From: Paraglaciecola sp. T6c
GTDB taxonomy: Bacteria > Pseudomonadota > Gammaproteobacteria > Enterobacterales > Alteromonadaceae
Length of the DNA stretch: 64,000 nt
Direction of reading: 5' to 3'
NCBI RefSeq assembly: GCF_000014225.1
Contig: NC_008228.1
Coordinates: forward strand, 4,588,001 to 4,652,000
Part shown: positions 1,280 through 7,333 of the stretch, piece by piece
Numbering within the stretch: the stretch's first letter is position 1
How the letters are laid out: each line of letters starts with the position of its first letter
Translations under genes and position numbers: made by a program
Notes under the pieces: model-generated
What the model was told of the DNA's origin: nothing
Databases searched by the model: none
What the model saw: the letters and a program-made list of their open reading frames with translations, nothing else

Positions 1280-3106
1280 TTAGAAATACCAACTGCCGCT
1301 TAAGGAAAGCTCTGTATTGTTATGATGACTGATACCGAAACGAATATCGGTTGTCTTGGATGCAAACGTACTGACCTCACAGGTACTTTTTATTCTTTTG
1401 CGATAAGCATTGCTGTCTATGCGGATCGGAAACACGATTTTACACAAGCCTTTGTACGCATCCGTTTGCCATAGAACACCCAAGGTCGGTAATATCATAA
1501 AGCGTGTATCCAGTGAGTCAGGTGTTTGCATTCTGCCAACGGCCAATGCATAAAGCGTAGTATCCCCCATCGCAATTCCTTTACCGAAGCCACTTTCTAG
1601 GAAAAATTCATTGCTGACATCTGCTGGCCCTAAATAGTCACGTTCGTTACCCAAGCGCAGCTGCCACGCAATGCCTATATCACCACGTAAACCAGTCGCA
1701 CCGGTGTCGACCGTTTCTATATTTAGCAAATCGAGTTTACTCAGCGCCAAATTGTCATCCGTTAAACGTACTGACAGCGCCGCCATTGATAATGCTGAGT
1801 TTGGTAAAATACCACCGCCCCGGGCTAGCATGTCGTAGTAAGCAGGGCGAAACATAATCTCTGCGAAGCCTCCGAGGCCATTATTGTGCCCTAATGTAGT
1901 TCGCACCGTCGTGGGGTTCTGTCCTGTGTGCGGCAATACTTCAGTATGTGTGCTCCACTGCACTTTTTTGGCTGGTAAAACGATACGTGCCCGCTGAACA
2001 TTCCTTTTAAGTGACTGCAGTTTGATATCATCTTTATTTAATTCTAGGCTGAAATTGACATAGTCGAGCAAAACGTCGAGTAACATCAGCTGTTGTTTCA
2101 ATGACAAGGCTTCAAGATAATTTTGGACTTCCACCAGCGTGCCTGCGTTATTAACAATGTCGCTTAGTGTCTCCTGCATCGTCACATCTAATTCAGCAAA
2201 ATGTTGTCTGAACCGAGCTTGGCGAGAAAGAGCGTGCTCTACCTTTTGCACGGCGGGGTGACCTGAAATCGTTGTTGCTTGCTCAAGAGCCGAAAATACG
2301 CTGATGGGTAATACGAAAGGCCGCCTATTTGATATCAAGTCTTGCTCTAATACTAGCTCGAGCATTTTGGCAATATGATACGCGCAATTGCGGTGGGTAA
2401 AATAATATCGATACTCTGTGAAAAGCAACTCCCAAGCATGGGCAATCAATATTGTCTTTTCGTCAGACGTTAAGTTTAAGGTATATTGCCAAAGGTCACG
2501 CATTTCAACTTCGGCGTAGTTAATATTGTAGCGGTAATAGTGGTTGCTGCTGTACTTGGCGTCATATCCCCCCACTAACCCCTTTAAGATATAAGCTACT
2601 GGGTTTTCGTTATCAGGTACTTTCGCACCAAAATTCAAGCTATTGCTCAATAGATCTACTGAGAACGCTTCACTTTTCAATTTAAACAACAAGTGACCAT
2701 AAAATGAGGCTGGATTACCCAGGTAACCATCGGCGTAAACAATACTCACCTGCTGCTTCGAGAGATCTCCTTGCCACTGTTTAAAATTGTCACACAAAGT
2801 AGGTACATGAACTACATCATAGCCCAAGGAACGCAAGTAAAGTGCTCTGGCTGGATAGCGGCATACTCGCTCATCGAATATTCTGTTAGATGGCGTTAAT
2901 AGCGCTAAGCTGGCCACAAATTCGGCCTCGGGGTTATTTTTCCCCTGAGTACTTAGGAAAAAATCAGCGTTCTTTATTTCACTAATATGCCTGCTTGCAG
3001 AATAGTGAACGAGTTTCTGCCACGTACGCGATTGCCAAGGCTCTTGGGCGTTTACGCTAACGGTAAAAAAAAGGCAAAAAGTTAAAATAGATAAGGCAAG
3101 TTTCAT
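1280..3106 (-). CDS. DUF4105 (Lnb N-terminal periplasmic domain) protein
   Basis: Exported protein of about 608 residues. The ATG at 3106 is preferred over the upstream one at 3127 because it begins directly with a signal peptide (MKLALSILTFCLFF, cleavage near VNA-QE). The first half resembles DUF4105, also called the Lnb N-terminal periplasmic domain: note YGHLLFKL and the H-R-N-C-A-Y-H-I segment near residue 245, with a conserved His and Cys suggesting a papain-like fold. The second half is rich in alternating hydrophobic residues and ends in W-Y-F, like an outer-membrane-associated beta domain. It follows the DUF3015 gene on the same strand by about 50 bases, a likely operon. No enzymatic role is established. 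Confidence 0.8.
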   Translation of the reverse strand: MKLALSILTFCLFFTVSVNAQEPWQSRTWQKLVHYSASRHISEIKNADFFLSTQGKNNPEAEFVASLALLTPSNRIFDERVCRYPARALYLRSLGYDVVHVPTLCDNFKQWQGDLSKQQVSIVYADGYLGNPASFYGHLLFKLKSEAFSVDLLSNSLNFGAKVPDNENPVAYILKGLVGGYDAKYSSNHYYRYNINYAEVEMRDLWQYTLNLTSDEKTILIAHAWELLFTEYRYYFTHRNCAYHIAKMLELVLEQDLISNRRPFVLPISVFSALEQATTISGHPAVQKVEHALSRQARFRQHFAELDVTMQETLSDIVNNAGTLVEVQNYLEALSLKQQLMLLDVLLDYVNFSLELNKDDIKLQSLKRNVQRARIVLPAKKVQWSTHTEVLPHTGQNPTTVRTTLGHNNGLGGFAEIMFRPAYYDMLARGGGILPNSALSMAALSVRLTDDNLALSKLDLLNIETVDTGATGLRGDIGIAWQLRLGNERDYLGPADVSNEFFLESGFGKGIAMGDTTLYALAVGRMQTPDSLDTRFMILPTLGVLWQTDAYKGLCKIVFPIRIDSNAYRKRIKSTCEVSTFASKTTDIRFGISHHNNTELSLSGSWYF

Positions 3107-3159
3107 GGGGCACTTTGAAACGGGCATCTAGGATACCCGTTAACGAGGATGAATATGAT

Positions 3160-3609
3160 TTAGCTAGCTGAACAAGCCGTTTCTGCAATATTGAACAATT
3201 GTTCTGCTTTCGCTGAATCACTTGCCACACTTGATAATACGTTCGTCGCTACTTCTGAACGAATTTCGCTCGCAGCAGTAGCATCACAGCTCATCATTGT
3301 CATCATTGCGGTCAAATGAGCGCCTTCACCTTGAACAATTTCATCTTCAAGTTGGCTATACGTTTCATTTATGAACATAGCAGTCTTGGTGCGCGCACCA
3401 TCACAGCTGTCTTCTGATGCACTCGCAGACGTCACCGCGGTTGTCCCTAGATCCCAAATGATGTTTGAAATAGCGGCAGCTACACCGTTTTCGGGGAATA
3501 TCATCGCGCCAATACCACATTGTTGCCAAGGGTTAAGCTTCTCTTCATCGGCTTGAACTGATGTAGTAGTTAGTAATAAAAGTGCTGCGGCACCAATAAT
3601 TTTTTTCAT
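3160..3609 (-). CDS. DUF3015 family periplasmic protein
   Basis: 149 residues from the ATG at 3609. A longer frame reaches 3690, but this ATG starts a clean signal peptide (MKKIIGAAALLLLTTTSVQA) and has a GGAAA stretch just upstream. The mature part begins N-P-W-Q-Q-C-G-I-G-A-M-I-F, followed by a helical C-terminal half with paired cysteines (near residues 66, 107 and 146), the pattern of DUF3015. These proteins are exported and of unknown function. It sits directly upstream of the DUF4105 gene on the same strand, so joint expression is likely. Family call fairly confident; function unknown. Confidence 0.8.
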   Translation of the reverse strand: MKKIIGAAALLLLTTTSVQADEEKLNPWQQCGIGAMIFPENGVAAAISNIIWDLGTTAVTSASASEDSCDGARTKTAMFINETYSQLEDEIVQGEGAHLTAMMTMMSCDATAASEIRSEVATNVLSSVASDSAKAEQLFNIAETACSAS

Positions 3610-3866
3610 TTTACTGTTTCCATTTTTTATAGTTATTTTCCTCGCGCGAGCGATACTTACATGTTTGTTACAAGTGAGCAACGCTTTCATCGCACAAGGG
3701 CGAAAACAGTATATTTAATAAGCAATTCAGATAATTAGGTAACAAATAATAACTAAAAAAGAAAAGCGGTAACCTACCTAGCGCAAATATTACGCGACAG
3801 GGATTTGCGCAGGGGGCGGACATCATGCCAATCGTTATTGCTTTGCATAGCACTTAAATAGCATAT

Positions 3867-4925
3867 TCAAAAGTAGGGAAACATCGTATTTGCTTGCTCG
3901 ATATCCAATGATTTTCCGTGGCGATTGACTGTCCGGTATTTCCCTAACTCGGCTGGTTTGAGATAGCCAGCAAGTTGCTCTAAATCGTTTAATCGAACCC
4001 CTTGGCTGACCAAGTACGTTAAATAGGTATGTCTTAATACCTCACCAGAGAGCTGTTCTGGGTAAGGTAGCTCAGCATCATGCGCGGCGTTGATAATGAG
4101 TTGATTAAAATCTTCAATTGAAAGCGGGTTTAACCATAATAAATCATCTTCCTTTAGCCCTTCACAAAGCTGCTCAAGGACAGTGATTAATTGACCAGCG
4201 AGTGGTATTTGCCGCGCATATGCACCCGTTATATTCAGCTTCGTTTTACCTATCATACAATCAGCTTTGGTAATTTGGCGCAGTTCAGTGGCATTGACAC
4301 CGCTTAACATTAAACCGATAACGGCCTTAGCTTGCTTATTTGCAACCCCGTACAAGGCTTGACACTCGTCGGTGGTGAGTAAACGGATGTTTTCTTGCTG
4401 GGGTTGAATACCTTGTTGAGGTTGATGACCTTTTTGGGGTTGAAGACTCTTTTGAGGTTGATGACTCTGCTGCTCGCCTAGGCGCAACGCTTGTGCCTTG
4501 GCCTCTAACTGCGCCTGATGAGCCCCCTGCAATTCAGCATAAGACTGGCCGCGTTGCTCACCGGGCAAAACCACAAAATTGGTGCTGCCTAAATTGGGTG
4601 AACTCCTACGCACAATAAAGCTAAATAATAATAATGCCGCTATAGCACATACAATGGCGGCAATGATGCTGATTAAAGTGTCTTGCCAATAGTTAGGACC
4701 CACAGGAAACTCTGGAGTAAAGGGCGGTTCGAGTATGCTTATTTTGGCATCAAACGGCTTAGATACTTCTTGTTCAACCAACTGATTATTTACCGTTTTC
4801 GCCTGTAATTGTAAGTCTTTGAGGGCATCATCTAACCGTCGATACTCGGCTAATTTTTGATTAAATTGCTGCGCTTGATTTTGAAAGTCTGCTAATTGCG
4901 CTGGCAAACGCTTCACTTTGCCCAC
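3867..4925 (-). CDS. C-terminal part of a split GumC/Wzz-like protein, with tyrosine-recombinase-like domain
   Basis: The frame opens with GTG directly after the TAA that ends the upstream piece, in the same reading frame, so the two are most simply one gene cut by a nonsense codon. This part (352 residues) continues the coiled coil (residues 1-55). It then has the proline-rich pre-membrane motif (I-L-E-P-P-F-T-P-E-F-P-V-G-P) and second membrane helix (about 83-106) of chain-length proteins. Next come four repeats of x-Q-P-Q-K/Q-x. The last 170 residues resemble a tyrosine recombinase catalytic fold: G-V-N-A-T-E-L-R-Q-I-T, E-V-L-R-H-T-Y-L-T-Y-L, and a terminal G-K-Y. The first catalytic Arg is Asn and the box-II first His is Glu, so cutting activity is unlikely. 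Independent translation of this half is uncertain, as no Shine-Dalgarno is evident. Confidence 0.65.
   Translation of the reverse strand: MGKVKRLPAQLADFQNQAQQFNQKLAEYRRLDDALKDLQLQAKTVNNQLVEQEVSKPFDAKISILEPPFTPEFPVGPNYWQDTLISIIAAIVCAIAALLLFSFIVRRSSPNLGSTNFVVLPGEQRGQSYAELQGAHQAQLEAKAQALRLGEQQSHQPQKSLQPQKGHQPQQGIQPQQENIRLLTTDECQALYGVANKQAKAVIGLMLSGVNATELRQITKADCMIGKTKLNITGAYARQIPLAGQLITVLEQLCEGLKEDDLLWLNPLSIEDFNQLIINAAHDAELPYPEQLSGEVLRHTYLTYLVSQGVRLNDLEQLAGYLKPAELGKYRTVNRHGKSLDIEQANTMFPYF
4402..4473 (-). repeat. Four 18-bp tandem repeats inside the Wzz-like gene
   Basis: Four imperfect direct repeats of 18 bases start at 4402, 4420, 4438 and 4456, each beginning GGTTGA on the plus strand. On the coding strand each gives a six-residue Gln/Pro unit (pattern QPQ-K/Q). 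The period is a multiple of three, so gain or loss of a unit keeps the frame. They form a flexible linker between the second membrane helix and the recombinase-like domain. Confidence 0.85.
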
Positions 4926-5903
4926 TTAAGCGGCTAAATTTCGCTGAGAATCCTGCAAGTATAAAAGCTGGCTGTCGGCTATTTGGTTTGCTAGCTCTTC
5001 TTTCAAGGCTTTCGCCTTTTGTTGTTTGGCTACTACCTCAGGATCACGTTGCAGGTATTGCTGTGTGTATTGCTCTGACAGTGCTGACAGCTCTCCCTCT
5101 AGCGCTTGCAGTACAGCTCGGTTCGCATCGATACTTGGGCGATCCGTGGGGCGCTCAACTTGCTGACCACTTGCTAATGATGCATTTAGACTGTCTAGCT
5201 CTGCCAGCGCCTGCGCTTTTTGCGCTTCAGCCTCATCTAAAGAATTGCTCAATCCTTTTATTTTATTAGGAATAATATTTTCATTACGCTCTAAAGAGAT
5301 AATATTATTGGCCTCAGAAAACGCCTCTACTACGTGCTTCTGTTCAGTGATTTTTTGCTCTAATACCGCCAATTGCTGTTGGTACTGCCGCTCTTCGTCA
5401 GAGCCGTTACTCAGTTTTTCTCGCTCTAATAATGAGGTATACAACGACAACCATTGTTGTAAAACATCCTCAAGCAAATCAGGAGTCGGCCCTGTAGTTT
5501 GCAAGGTGATTATCTTGCCTGTTTCACTGGCCGTTGCGCTAAGCATATATCGTAACTGCTGAACATTAAGATCAATTAAATGGTCTTCTCGCAGCTTAGT
5601 TGATAACGCCTGTAAAGTGCTGTTGCTGGTTAAACGTTTCTGGTTAAGGCTAAGTTGCTGCTGGGCTATATAATCAAGCTCTTCAGCATTTTGCGAGGTG
5701 TAAGCAAAATGCATAATCGCCTGGCTTTGATACTCAAGCGCTCTGGTCCAAATAAAGAGATTGGCCAAGAGCATCACACAAAGAAACGTACCTACGAGTA
5801 CTTGCCATCGCTTGGTTTGGATTTTTTGTTGCTCTTGCGCAGCGATAGGGTCGTAACCACCGTTTGGCATATTGGGAATATAATCAACTTTGTTAAAGGG
5901 CAT
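4926..5903 (-). CDS. N-terminal part of a split GumC/Wzz-like polysaccharide chain-length protein
   Basis: 325 residues from the ATG at 5903. After a short cytoplasmic start (residues 1-30) there is a membrane helix (about 34-53, VLVGTFLCVMLLANLFIW). A long periplasmic region rich in coiled coil follows, with the Wzz/GumC hallmark Y-T-Q-Q-Y-L-Q-R-D-P-E-V near residue 285. Such inner-membrane proteins set polysaccharide chain length or help export. The frame stops at TAA 4926-4928, in the middle of the coiled coil and before the expected second membrane helix. That helix appears immediately downstream in the same frame. One base change (for example CAA to TAA) would explain it. No other polysaccharide genes are next to it, so it is an orphan. 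Probably inactive unless the stop is read through. Confidence 0.75.
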   Translation of the reverse strand: MPFNKVDYIPNMPNGGYDPIAAQEQQKIQTKRWQVLVGTFLCVMLLANLFIWTRALEYQSQAIMHFAYTSQNAEELDYIAQQQLSLNQKRLTSNSTLQALSTKLREDHLIDLNVQQLRYMLSATASETGKIITLQTTGPTPDLLEDVLQQWLSLYTSLLEREKLSNGSDEERQYQQQLAVLEQKITEQKHVVEAFSEANNIISLERNENIIPNKIKGLSNSLDEAEAQKAQALAELDSLNASLASGQQVERPTDRPSIDANRAVLQALEGELSALSEQYTQQYLQRDPEVVAKQQKAKALKEELANQIADSQLLYLQDSQRNLAA

Positions 5904-6255: not shown

Positions 6256-6315
6256 TATATTGAGTGAGTTAAGACTATATTGGGTGCGTTAAGACTTTAT
6301 TGAGTGCATTAAGAT
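6256..6315. repeat. Three 20-bp tandem repeats reaching into the end of the oxidoreductase gene
   Basis: Units at 6256-6275, 6276-6295 and 6296-6315 share the pattern TWTATTGRGTGMRTTAAGAY with few differences. The last unit contains the TAA stop (6309-6311) and final codons of the minus-strand oxidoreductase, so the array straddles the gene end. Confidence 0.85.
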
Positions 6316-7333
6316 TTAGACAACCCGGCAAAAAACGCTTGGCTCTCAGTTAAAATACGCTCTGTTTCTTGCGGCTCAGGTTGCGTGGACCAATCTCCTG
6401 GTTTGAAAGTACCGCCTAAGATCATGTAGTCATTTCGCGAAAACATATACAGCGGCCCTTTACCACTGCCACCGCCTACAGTAAGAAAGTCTACGGCTGG
6501 GTCTGGTGGGAGTAAAATCAACTGGCCTTTTGCAGGGGTAATCCCTTCATCACCAAACAAGGCACGTGAACCTAAACCAGTGCAATTGAATACAACGGGC
6601 TCTTGTAACCCATGTATTTCGTCTTGGTCTTTAAAGTCACGGATCACAAATACACCACCAGCAGCTCTGACGTCTTGAATCAAGCGACGTAAGAAAGTCC
6701 CAGTCTCCACCAGCATGGTTGCCGACACAGTACAGTAATTTGTAGTAAAGGGATGCTCACCAGGGCCATAGGTCTGTCGATAGGGGTAAAACTGACTAAA
6801 TGGACTATCCGCCGCCGGGAGGGTGTCGCTTGCAGTATATAACTCTGTCCATTTTATCGCGTAGTCGTCGCCGACCATACGAGCAAAGGTTTCATGGGAT
6901 ATTTGCGCTGCAAGTTGCAATTGCAATTTAAATGCAGCCGAAGATACCATCGGGTCATGCACGCTGAACGGGCCCCATTCACCTCCAGCGACTTGCGACG
7001 TGGTGTGCCGTGCCATTTCTCGGGTATAAATGGTTACGCTCCAGCCTGCTTCTTGCAATAATCTGGCTGTGGTGAGCCCCATAACACCGCCACCGATAAT
7101 GGCTGCTTTTTTACTCTTATCATTACCCACGTAAGTGTTTTTGACTTCACTGACCGCTAATGCAGAAGAGCCCCAAGATAGGGTAACGCCACCGCCACCA
7201 TGGGTTTTCGAGAGAATGGACGCTCAAAGCCTTTGTTTGCCGGTGTTTGCGTACAACCGGTTAGCGAAGCAGCGACCGCTCCGGCCCCCAGACCTTGTAA
7301 AAAATTTCTACGCTTAAGTGCTCGGTGCAACAT
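6309..7333 (-). pseudogene. Tat-exported DAO-family FAD oxidoreductase, frameshifted
   Basis: The long open part (6309-7130, 273 residues from a GTG) is a FAD-dependent oxidoreductase of the D-amino-acid-oxidase/glycine-oxidase fold. It has the dinucleotide-binding G-G-G-V-M-G-L at the N-terminus, V-F-N-C-T-G-L-G-S-R-A-L near residue 180 and a late substrate loop G-G-T-F-K-P-G. Upstream, an ATG at 7333 in another frame encodes a twin-arginine signal (K-R-R-N-F-L-Q-G) ending in L-T-G-C, a lipobox-like Cys. That frame ends at TAG 7157. The second frame is open from about 7223, continuing with a glycine run and A-L-A-V-S-E-V-K-N-T-Y-V-G into the oxidoreductase. A single indel between 7157 and 7223, near the GGT/GGC run, explains both. 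Either the gene is broken or the base count there is wrong. Confidence 0.7.

What the first reader, a model, noticed from the sequence alone, without database searches (positions are those of the whole stretch)
3867..5903. Chain-length (GumC/Wzz-like) protein fused to a degenerate tyrosine-recombinase domain
Read as one frame, the product has two membrane helices around a long coiled coil, as in polysaccharide co-polymerases. The cytoplasmic end carries an integrase-like fold where a tyrosine kinase is sometimes found. Catalytic positions look lost (first Arg is Asn, first box-II His is Glu) while L-R-H and the final Tyr remain. A recombinase fold re-used as a cytoplasmic interaction or DNA-binding module on a membrane polysaccharide regulator would be unusual.
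Basis: partly seen in the sequence, partly recalled or inferred. Interest (0 to 1): 0.75.

Follow-up and report, generated by a model that had tools for sequence, protein, structure and literature searches.

The report
Polysaccharide-length protein with dead recombinase domain
A bacterial membrane protein of the kind that sets the length of exported sugar chains carries, on its inner end, a DNA-recombinase fold that has lost its active site and its positive charge; unbroken versions occur in eight bacterial families, while the copy in this genome is interrupted by a stop codon.

Summary
Window 3867-5903 (minus strand) reads as one chain-length (PCP, GumC/Wzz-like) protein ending in a tyrosine-recombinase-like domain, but here it is split by an in-frame TAA (4926-4928). 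The join is not chance: 35 relatives from 8 families have it, none with an internal stop (one is cut by a contig edge). The last ~170 residues are homologous to recombinase catalytic domains (Phage_integrase over Pfam's cut-off; profile-profile P 6e-15). None of 36 members keeps the full catalytic set: first Arg in 1, box-II His in 1, third His in 1; second Arg in 32, Tyr in 30. No core-binding domain was found, and the charge is inverted (net -12 to 0; +1 to +18 in 105 real recombinases). The domain is under purifying selection (omega about 0.1). In a draw of 369 Gammaproteobacteria all 6 fusion genomes have an exosortase (127 of 369 do), which hints at a link with exosortase-type polysaccharide systems; kinship is not corrected for. 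Best reading: a co-polymerase in which a dead Xer-like module stands where Wzc has its kinase and serves assembly without phosphorylation. DNA binding is unlikely. The mechanism is inferred.

The parts
3867..5903 (-). Fused reading frame: chain-length (PCP) protein + tyrosine-recombinase-like domain, interrupted by one in-frame stop
   Evidence: whole-frame profile match with 1 TAA; 35 relatives without an internal stop
4926..5903 (-). First piece (325 aa): membrane segment 1 and most of the periplasmic coiled coil
   Evidence: NCBIfam TIGR03007 XrtA chain-length determinant, E 2.1e-10, 39.5 bits, far below the equivalog cut-off of 278.85
5745..5801 (-). Membrane segment 1 (residues 35-53)
   Evidence: hydropathy of the orthologue L033, which has the same numbering there
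4926..4928 (-). In-frame TAA that splits the gene in this genome; the next codon is GTG
   Evidence: no internal stop in the 35 relatives
3867..4925 (-). Second piece (352 aa): rest of the coiled coil, membrane segment 2, Gln-rich linker, recombinase-like domain
   Evidence: PF00589 E 3.8e-7 at residues 183-334; TIGR03007 E 6.7e-4 at residues 39-106
4611..4667 (-). Membrane segment 2 (residues 413-431), preceded by the Pro-rich stretch P-E-F-P-V-G-P
   Evidence: hydropathy of L033; sequence
4386..4610 (-). Cytoplasmic Gln/Pro-rich linker, variable in length between species
   Evidence: alignment; dN higher than in the PCP regions in nearly all pairs compared
3867..4385 (-). Recombinase-like catalytic domain without the catalytic set (Arg I = Asn, Lys = Thr, His II = Glu, Arg II kept, His III = Tyr, Tyr kept); acidic, pI 5.4
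   Evidence: modelled fold

Best explanation
It is a nonsense-interrupted copy of a conserved inner-membrane polysaccharide co-polymerase (PCP, chain-length determinant) whose cytoplasmic C-terminus is a pseudo-recombinase: a Xer-type catalytic domain without a recognisable core-binding domain, without its catalytic set and without its positive charge. In species with an unbroken gene I think the periplasmic coiled coil oligomerises and governs polymerisation and export of an exopolysaccharide, in genomes that have an exosortase-type polysaccharide system. The pseudo-recombinase sits where Wzc has its tyrosine-kinase domain and would act as a protein-protein assembly module, holding or switching the ring of subunits without phosphorylation; the tail-in-neighbour contacts by which recombinases form cyclic tetramers would be a ready-made means. 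Shown: the architecture and its conservation, the lost catalytic set, the charge inversion, the purifying selection, the co-occurrence with exosortase. Inferred: PCP activity, oligomerisation by the domain, independence of phosphorylation. In this strain the gene is probably inactive or recently broken, unless the stop is a sequencing error.
For: Architecture: 35 relatives, 8 families, no internal stop. PCP half: TIGR03007 E 2.1e-10, Wzc in the PDB E 8.1e-4, PF02706 Wzz in 5 of 29 members at E<=0.01. Domain: PF00589 in 19 of 29 members at E<=0.01, XerA E 2.4e-9, hhalign probability 98.4%, P 6.3e-15, against controls of P 0.59 (PCP half) and 0.14 (reversed domain). Catalytic set incomplete in 36 of 36. 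Net charge -12..0 (36 members) against +2..+18 (30 host recombinases) and +1..+18 (75 phage recombinases). Omega in the domain 0.09-0.12 in five pairs of unbroken relatives. 23 of the 36 fusion domains and 30 host recombinases put in one tree fall on two sides of a branch with support 100/100. Exosortase in 6 of 6 fusion genomes in a draw of 369, where 127 have one (hypergeometric P 0.0015); 35 of 36 fusion genomes overall. In L104 the fusion lies among polysaccharide genes. Precedents: EcpK, a pseudokinase proposed as scaffold of a PCP (PMC12004946, abstract and section 9); Wzc octamer held by tail-in-neighbour contacts (PMC8285477, passages); cyclic C-terminal donation in Cre and lambda Int (PMC5052618, passages).
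Against: No experiment. No oligomer was modelled; the fold model rests mostly on 64 phage recombinases in its alignment, and with 2 close sequences the prediction failed (pLDDT 43). No polysaccharide cluster was recognised by eye around the fusion in the window or in the relatives inspected, apart from L104/L107 and single sugar-enzyme-like genes near L073 and L076. The window genome already has an XrtA locus with its own chain-length determinant and its own tyrosine kinase, both over NCBIfam cut-offs. 5 of 22 genomes of the genus lack the fusion, so it is dispensable. The exosortase co-occurrence is not corrected for kinship, one fusion genome (G017, 92% complete) shows none, and nearly all members of the window's own family have one with or without the fusion (30 of 32 controls).
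Confidence: 0.5

Rival explanations
1. Membrane-anchored DNA-binding regulator: the periplasmic part senses polysaccharide and the recombinase-like domain binds DNA, as MrpR does, so that the protein acts as a one-component transcription factor.
For: Inactive recombinase folds are known as DNA-binding repressors (MrpR, PMC10516654, passages; MrpR/YopR and SroF structures are among the weaker fold matches, E 1e-3 and above). Arg II is kept in 32 of 36.
Against: Net charge 0 or negative in 36 of 36 members, positive in 30 of 30 host and 75 of 75 phage recombinases. No core-binding domain among the Pfam matches. The segment that carries the catalytic Lys is shortened. MrpR keeps a core-binding domain.
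Confidence: 0.1
2. Docking module for another cytoplasmic protein, such as the stand-alone XrtA-locus kinase, a glycosyltransferase or a positively charged partner, rather than a self-assembling ring.
For: The window genome encodes a separate XrtA-associated tyrosine autokinase beside its canonical chain-length determinant (L140:11091-11990). Strong conservation of the L-R-H-T-Y-L-T-Y-L...R-L-N-D-L-E-Q stretch and of the acidic character fits a fixed partner surface.
Against: No partner gene conserved next to the fusion across families was recognised.
Confidence: 0.25
3. Functionless relic: a recombinase fragment that became fused and is carried along.
For: Active-site residues are lost; 5 of 22 genomes of the genus lack the gene; the window copy is broken.
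Against: Omega 0.09-0.12 in the domain in five pairs, ten invariant columns among 24 members, persistence in 8 families.
Confidence: 0.05
4. Active site-specific recombinase tethered to the membrane.
For: Arg II and Tyr remain in most members (32 and 30 of 36); L048 keeps Arg I, L038 His II and L103 His III.
Against: No member of 36 has the full set; no core-binding domain found; the domain is acidic.
Confidence: 0.01
5. The two pieces in the window are two working genes, a natural split that reassembles in the membrane.
For: The second ORF begins with GTG directly after the stop; its domain shows no sign of long decay (4 amino-acid against 5 synonymous changes on the window branch).
Against: None of the 35 relatives is split; no clear ribosome-binding site was seen by eye before the GTG (sequence printed, no calculation); the second piece would begin inside the periplasmic coiled coil; the neighbouring oxidoreductase gene is broken too.
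Confidence: 0.05

Closest known systems
Wzc and other PCP-2a tyrosine-autokinase co-polymerases
   Same: Membrane segment, periplasmic helical region, membrane segment, cytoplasmic C-terminal domain; profile match of the PCP part to Wzc in the PDB, E 8.1e-4
   Different: The cytoplasmic domain is recombinase-like, not a P-loop kinase
XrtA/PEP-CTERM chain-length determinant (TIGR03007)
   Same: Best curated match of the PCP half (E 2.1e-10); the fusion occurs in exosortase genomes
   Different: 39.5 bits, far below the equivalog cut-off of 278.85; the true one (523.9 bits) is a separate 527-aa gene in this genome, matched over nearly its whole length (L140:11987-13570)
EcpK/EpsV and HfsB/HfsA (PCP with BY pseudokinase)
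   Same: A catalytically dead cytoplasmic module proposed to serve a PCP by direct contact rather than phosphorylation (PMC12004946, abstract and section 9)
   Different: Their dead module is a kinase fold on a separate protein; here it is a recombinase fold fused to the PCP
MrpR/YopR and SroF (inactive recombinase-fold repressors)
   Same: A tyrosine-recombinase fold without recombinase activity (MrpR: PMC10516654, passages; SroF known to me here only from PDB titles)
   Different: DNA-binding phage or prophage repressors; MrpR has core-binding and catalytic domains; not described as fused to a membrane protein in the passages read
XerA / XerC / XerD recombinases
   Same: Catalytic-domain fold and sequence profile; an aromatic/His-Pro pair near the C-terminus in 30 of 36 (loose pattern) resembles the HPR(A/G) end of XerC/D (by eye)
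   Different: Active recombinases keep Arg-Lys-His-Arg-His-Tyr, a core-binding domain (recalled) and a positive charge

Membership tests
PCP (Wzz/GumC/Wzc) co-polymerases | Two membrane segments flanking a long periplasmic helical region | tested here: met
   33 of 35 relatives by hydropathy; L051 segment 1 below cut-off, L107 cut by a contig edge; 11 of 35 have a further weaker stretch after segment 2
PCP (Wzz/GumC/Wzc) co-polymerases | Sequence homology to curated PCP families | tested here: met
   TIGR03007 E 2.1e-10, below cut-off; Wzc 8.1e-4; PF02706 in only 5 of 29 members
PCP (Wzz/GumC/Wzc) co-polymerases | Function in chain-length control or export | not testable with these tools
   needs a mutant
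PCP-2a (Wzc type) | Cytoplasmic P-loop tyrosine kinase with Tyr-rich tail | tested here: not met
   the C-terminus matches recombinase models and no kinase model
TIGR03007 XrtA chain-length determinant (equivalog) | Score over the curated cut-off (278.85 bits) | tested here: not met
   39.5 bits for piece 1; the separate L140 gene scores 523.9
Tyrosine recombinase | Catalytic-domain fold | tested here: met
   by sequence; modelled fold, XerA TM 0.76 (alignment mostly phage recombinases)
Tyrosine recombinase | Arg-Lys-His-Arg-His/Trp-Tyr catalytic set | tested here: not met
   0 of 36 members complete
Tyrosine recombinase | N-terminal core-binding domain | tested here: not met
   the domain follows directly on the linker after membrane segment 2; no core-binding family among the Pfam matches
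Tyrosine recombinase | Positively charged catalytic domain | tested here: not met
   net charge <=0 in 36 of 36; >0 in 30 of 30 host and 75 of 75 phage recombinases
MrpR/SroF-type repressors | Binds operator DNA | not testable with these tools
   charge and missing core-binding domain argue against it
BY-pseudokinase PCP systems (EcpK/EpsV) | Kinase-fold module | tested here: not met
   the module is recombinase-like

The most novel reading that the evidence does not exclude
A further, phosphorylation-independent class of polysaccharide co-polymerase in which a recombinase-derived domain has replaced the kinase ring: the cyclic tail-donation that builds recombinase tetramers is re-used, without DNA, to assemble and release the co-polymerase ring.
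Probability: 0.3. Interest if true: 0.82.

Novelty: new variant of a known kind. Interest (0 to 1): 0.66.

Why it matters
How polysaccharide co-polymerases switch between assembled and disassembled states is explained for Wzc by phosphorylation of a tail that docks in the neighbouring kinase (PMC8285477, passages). Co-polymerases without a kinase need another device. A conserved dead recombinase domain at the kinase position offers a specific, testable candidate. It would also be a case of a DNA recombinase fold turned into a protein-only module by reversing its charge; the inactive recombinases met in these searches (MrpR, SroF) are DNA-binding repressors.

Tried and rejected
(1) HD-GYP/c-di-GMP link. 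In the 23 relatives the fusion is followed by an alkyltransferase-like gene in 16 and by an HD-domain gene in 15, with a DTW-domain gene divergent upstream in 14 (Pfam names: PF01035, PF13487, PF03942). I took this at first for a functional operon. Of 20 genomes in which no fusion was found, 18 have the alkyltransferase-like gene; 6 of these 18 have the whole DTW / alkyltransferase / HD block with no room for the fusion, and 2 more have DTW next to the alkyltransferase gene. The block exists without the fusion, so this neighbourhood is no evidence of function.

(2) Structure prediction from the window domain plus one 88% identical relative failed (pLDDT 43.3). A second run with 64 phage recombinases in the alignment gave pLDDT 87.5, pTM 0.85 and XerA as best match. 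This shows compatibility with the fold, not independent proof, since most of the alignment was recombinases.

(3) A viral-contig scan with the domain profile found no relative (9 pattern hits, none confirmed; only one peptide pattern was used). The named scan of genome contigs with one protein as query found only Paraglaciecola mesophila KMM 241, because a single protein finds close relatives only.

(4) Decay test of the window copy: in the domain 4 amino-acid and 5 synonymous changes on the window branch (10 and 8 on the L033 branch); in the PCP part 10 and 18 (2 and 11 on the L033 branch). The excess of amino-acid changes in the PCP part of the window branch is small and was not tested. A recent nonsense change and a sequencing error both remain open.

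(5) Literature: four searches that combined chain-length or polysaccharide terms with integrase or recombinase terms (5, 4, 6 and 0 papers listed) gave no title or abstract start that describes such a fusion. I saw listings only, in a library of openly licensed PMC papers.

(6) The naming of genes as polysaccharide-related was by eye, except those scanned.
Full report
What is in the sequence. On the minus strand, 5903-4926 (325 aa) and 4925-3867 (352 aa) are two ORFs in one frame, separated only by a TAA. The window lies in a single-contig genome of 5.19 Mb, and the locus gives one match there. The only named relative found is Paraglaciecola mesophila KMM 241, 88% identical over the second piece.

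Is the join real? Yes. Of 196 genomes searched with the second piece, 24 match, the window's own included. All 23 others carry one ORF of 655-687 aa that covers both pieces. Profile searches gave 8 of 394 genomes in the order (one new), 6 full-length fusions of 369 in the class (5 other genomes matched only in the PCP part), 2 full-length of 299 in the phylum, both already known (2 others only in the PCP part), and 7 of 150 in the order of G802 (6 new). These searches score only the best few candidates per genome, so absences are less certain than presences. In total I examined 36 members: the window copy and 35 others, from 8 families (f1, f20, f82, f118, f194, f201, f216, f263; handles, not names). 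None of the 35 has an internal stop; L107 lacks its N-terminus at a contig edge. The window copy is the only interrupted one.

The N-terminal half. NCBIfam's XrtA-system chain-length determinant matches piece 1 at E 2.1e-10 and piece 2 at 6.7e-4, far below its equivalog cut-off. A profile of 23 members reaches Wzc in the PDB at E 8.1e-4. Pfam's Wzz model matches 5 of 29 members at E<=0.01. Two hydrophobic segments, near residues 35-53 and 413-431 of L033, enclose the coiled coil in 33 of 35 relatives; 11 of 35 show a further, weaker stretch after segment 2. This is a PCP-like protein; the function itself is untested.

The C-terminal domain. Pfam Phage_integrase matches the window copy over its cut-off (30.5 against 27.1 bits) and 19 of 29 members at E<=0.01. 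A 24-member profile reaches XerA at E 2.4e-9, XerD at 1.1e-3 and MrpR only at 0.38. Profile-profile comparison of 36 domains with 30 recombinases from 12 fusion-bearing genomes (32 loci taken; one gave no usable ORF and one lacked the box-I motif) gives probability 98.4% and P 6.3e-15 over 159 columns. The PCP half (P 0.59) and the reversed domain (P 0.14) give nothing. A model of the window domain made with 64 phage recombinases in the alignment has pLDDT 87.5 and matches XerA best (E 6.1e-8, TM 0.76). That run leans on recombinase sequences; the run with only two close sequences failed.

It has lost the chemistry. Against XerD as reference, Arg I is kept in 1 of 36 (L048), Lys in 5 (an unsure column beside a gap), His II in 1 (L038), Arg II in 32, His III in 1 (L103), Tyr in 30; none has the full set. 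Three members (L104, L106, L107) have lost Arg II and Tyr as well. No core-binding domain is among the Pfam matches. The charge is inverted. The 36 fusion domains have net -12 to 0 and pI 4.5-7.3 (median 5.0). The 30 host recombinases have net +2 to +18 and pI 6.5-10.7 (median 9.9), so the pI ranges touch while the net charges do not. The 75 phage recombinases (of 80 loci, after trimming) have net +1 to +18 and pI 7.9-11.2. Slice ends were not identical between the sets. This is the strongest evidence against DNA binding. In a tree of 23 of the 36 fusion domains and the 30 host recombinases the two groups are separated with support 100/100 (unrooted in effect), so one origin is likely.

It is kept by selection. 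Of 11 pairs computed, the five between unbroken relatives with dS up to 1.2 give dN/dS 0.09-0.12 in the domain; the window-L033 pair gives 0.19, and the remaining pairs are close to saturation. On the window branch since P. mesophila the domain shows 4 amino-acid and 5 synonymous changes, no sign of long decay; the PCP part shows 10 and 18, against 2 and 11 on the other branch, a small excess not tested. The break is therefore recent, or a sequencing error. The neighbouring oxidoreductase gene also lacks about 40 codons and changes frame, which hints at local decay.

Where it belongs. In the window, and in the relatives I inspected, no polysaccharide cluster was recognised around the gene, with exceptions (largely by eye). 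In L104 it lies near a match to a TIGR03097 exosortase-system ligase (below that model's cut-off), a VanZ-family protein, a nucleotide-sugar dehydrogenase and a WecE-like transaminase; L107 has the same kind of dehydrogenase. Exosortase (PF09721) occurs in 35 of 36 fusion genomes, the exception being G017 (92% complete), against 34 of 44 chosen controls; 30 of the 32 controls of the window's own family have one, so that family is uninformative. The fairer test is the even draw of 369 Gammaproteobacteria: 127 have exosortase, and 6 of 6 fusion genomes do (hypergeometric P 0.0015, or 0.0045 without the window genome). Kinship is not corrected for; two of the six share a genus. A trypsin-like protease that lies next to the fusion in L104, L106 and L107, and next to an exosortase gene in G729 (52-54% identical), occurs in 35 of 36 fusion genomes and in 18 of 36 exosortase-positive controls without a detected fusion; 25 of the 36 fusion genomes belong to two families, and both controls from the window's family have the protease too, so this is weak. 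The exosortase beside it in G729 is below the XrtA cut-off (147.5 against 208 bits), so the link is to exosortase systems in general rather than to XrtA alone. The window genome holds a separate XrtA locus with chain-length determinant TIGR03007 (523.9 bits), tyrosine autokinase TIGR03018, glycosyltransferase TIGR03013 and exosortase A, all over their cut-offs. The fusion is thus an extra co-polymerase-like protein there.

How it may work. Passages read say that the Wzc octamer is held by a C-terminal tail docked in the neighbouring kinase and released by phosphorylation (PMC8285477). Cre and lambda Int synapses are held by C-termini donated cyclically to the neighbour (PMC5052618). EcpK, a dead kinase, is proposed to act as a scaffold for a PCP without phosphorylation (PMC12004946, abstract and section 9). 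A dead Xer-like domain at the kinase position, with an aromatic/His-Pro pair near its end in 30 of 36 members (loose pattern), fits a phosphorylation-independent assembly module. This step is inference.

A correction made on the way. The HD-domain and alkyltransferase-like genes behind the fusion in 15 and 16 of 23 relatives looked like a functional operon, but 6 of 18 loci from genomes without a detected fusion have the same block with an empty site. I do not use it as evidence.

Verdict. Real, conserved, and not described in the papers that my four searches listed. New variant of a known kind: a PCP with a recombinase-derived module. The architecture is close to certain; the mechanism is about even.

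Noticed in passing
window 6309-7333 (minus strand): The neighbouring FAD-dependent oxidoreductase gene (PF01266 in its 384-aa relative L053:5507-6661) is broken: about 40 codons (residues 48-87) are missing and the frame changes.
   Followed up: partly
L224, L225, L226, L230, L240, L241: Empty sites: the DTW / alkyltransferase-like / HD-domain block occurs without the fusion gene between, also within the genus, so the fusion is present or absent at a fixed place.
   Followed up: yes
L142:10811-11656; L104:10763-11650; L106:565-1392; L107:2549-3382: A trypsin-like protease (PF13365) lies beside the fusion in three genomes and beside an exosortase in another fusion genome; present in 35 of 36 fusion genomes and 18 of 36 exosortase-positive controls. 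It may belong to an extended exosortase polysaccharide system.
   Followed up: partly
L140:9481-18184 (own genome, about 1.407-1.416 Mb): XrtA-type polysaccharide locus of the window genome: TIGR03007, TIGR03018, TIGR03013 and exosortase A all over their cut-offs.
   Followed up: yes
L053:9060-10394 against window 1280-3690: In P. mesophila the region downstream of the fusion is rearranged: the 615-aa Lnb_N-domain protein of the window (1280-3127) is only 444 aa there, and no counterpart of the DUF3015 gene (3160-3690) is in its list of ORFs of 150 aa or more.
   Followed up: no
L048, L038, L103, L104/L106/L107: Uneven loss of the catalytic set: L048 keeps Arg I, L038 His II, L103 His III; L104/L106/L107 have lost Arg II and Tyr as well.
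   Followed up: no
L033, L034, L035, L041, L043 against the other relatives: In the window's own subgroup of the genus the fusion sits at another place, beside an oxidoreductase or genes that cluster with an ABC transporter ATPase, so it has moved within the genus.
   Followed up: no
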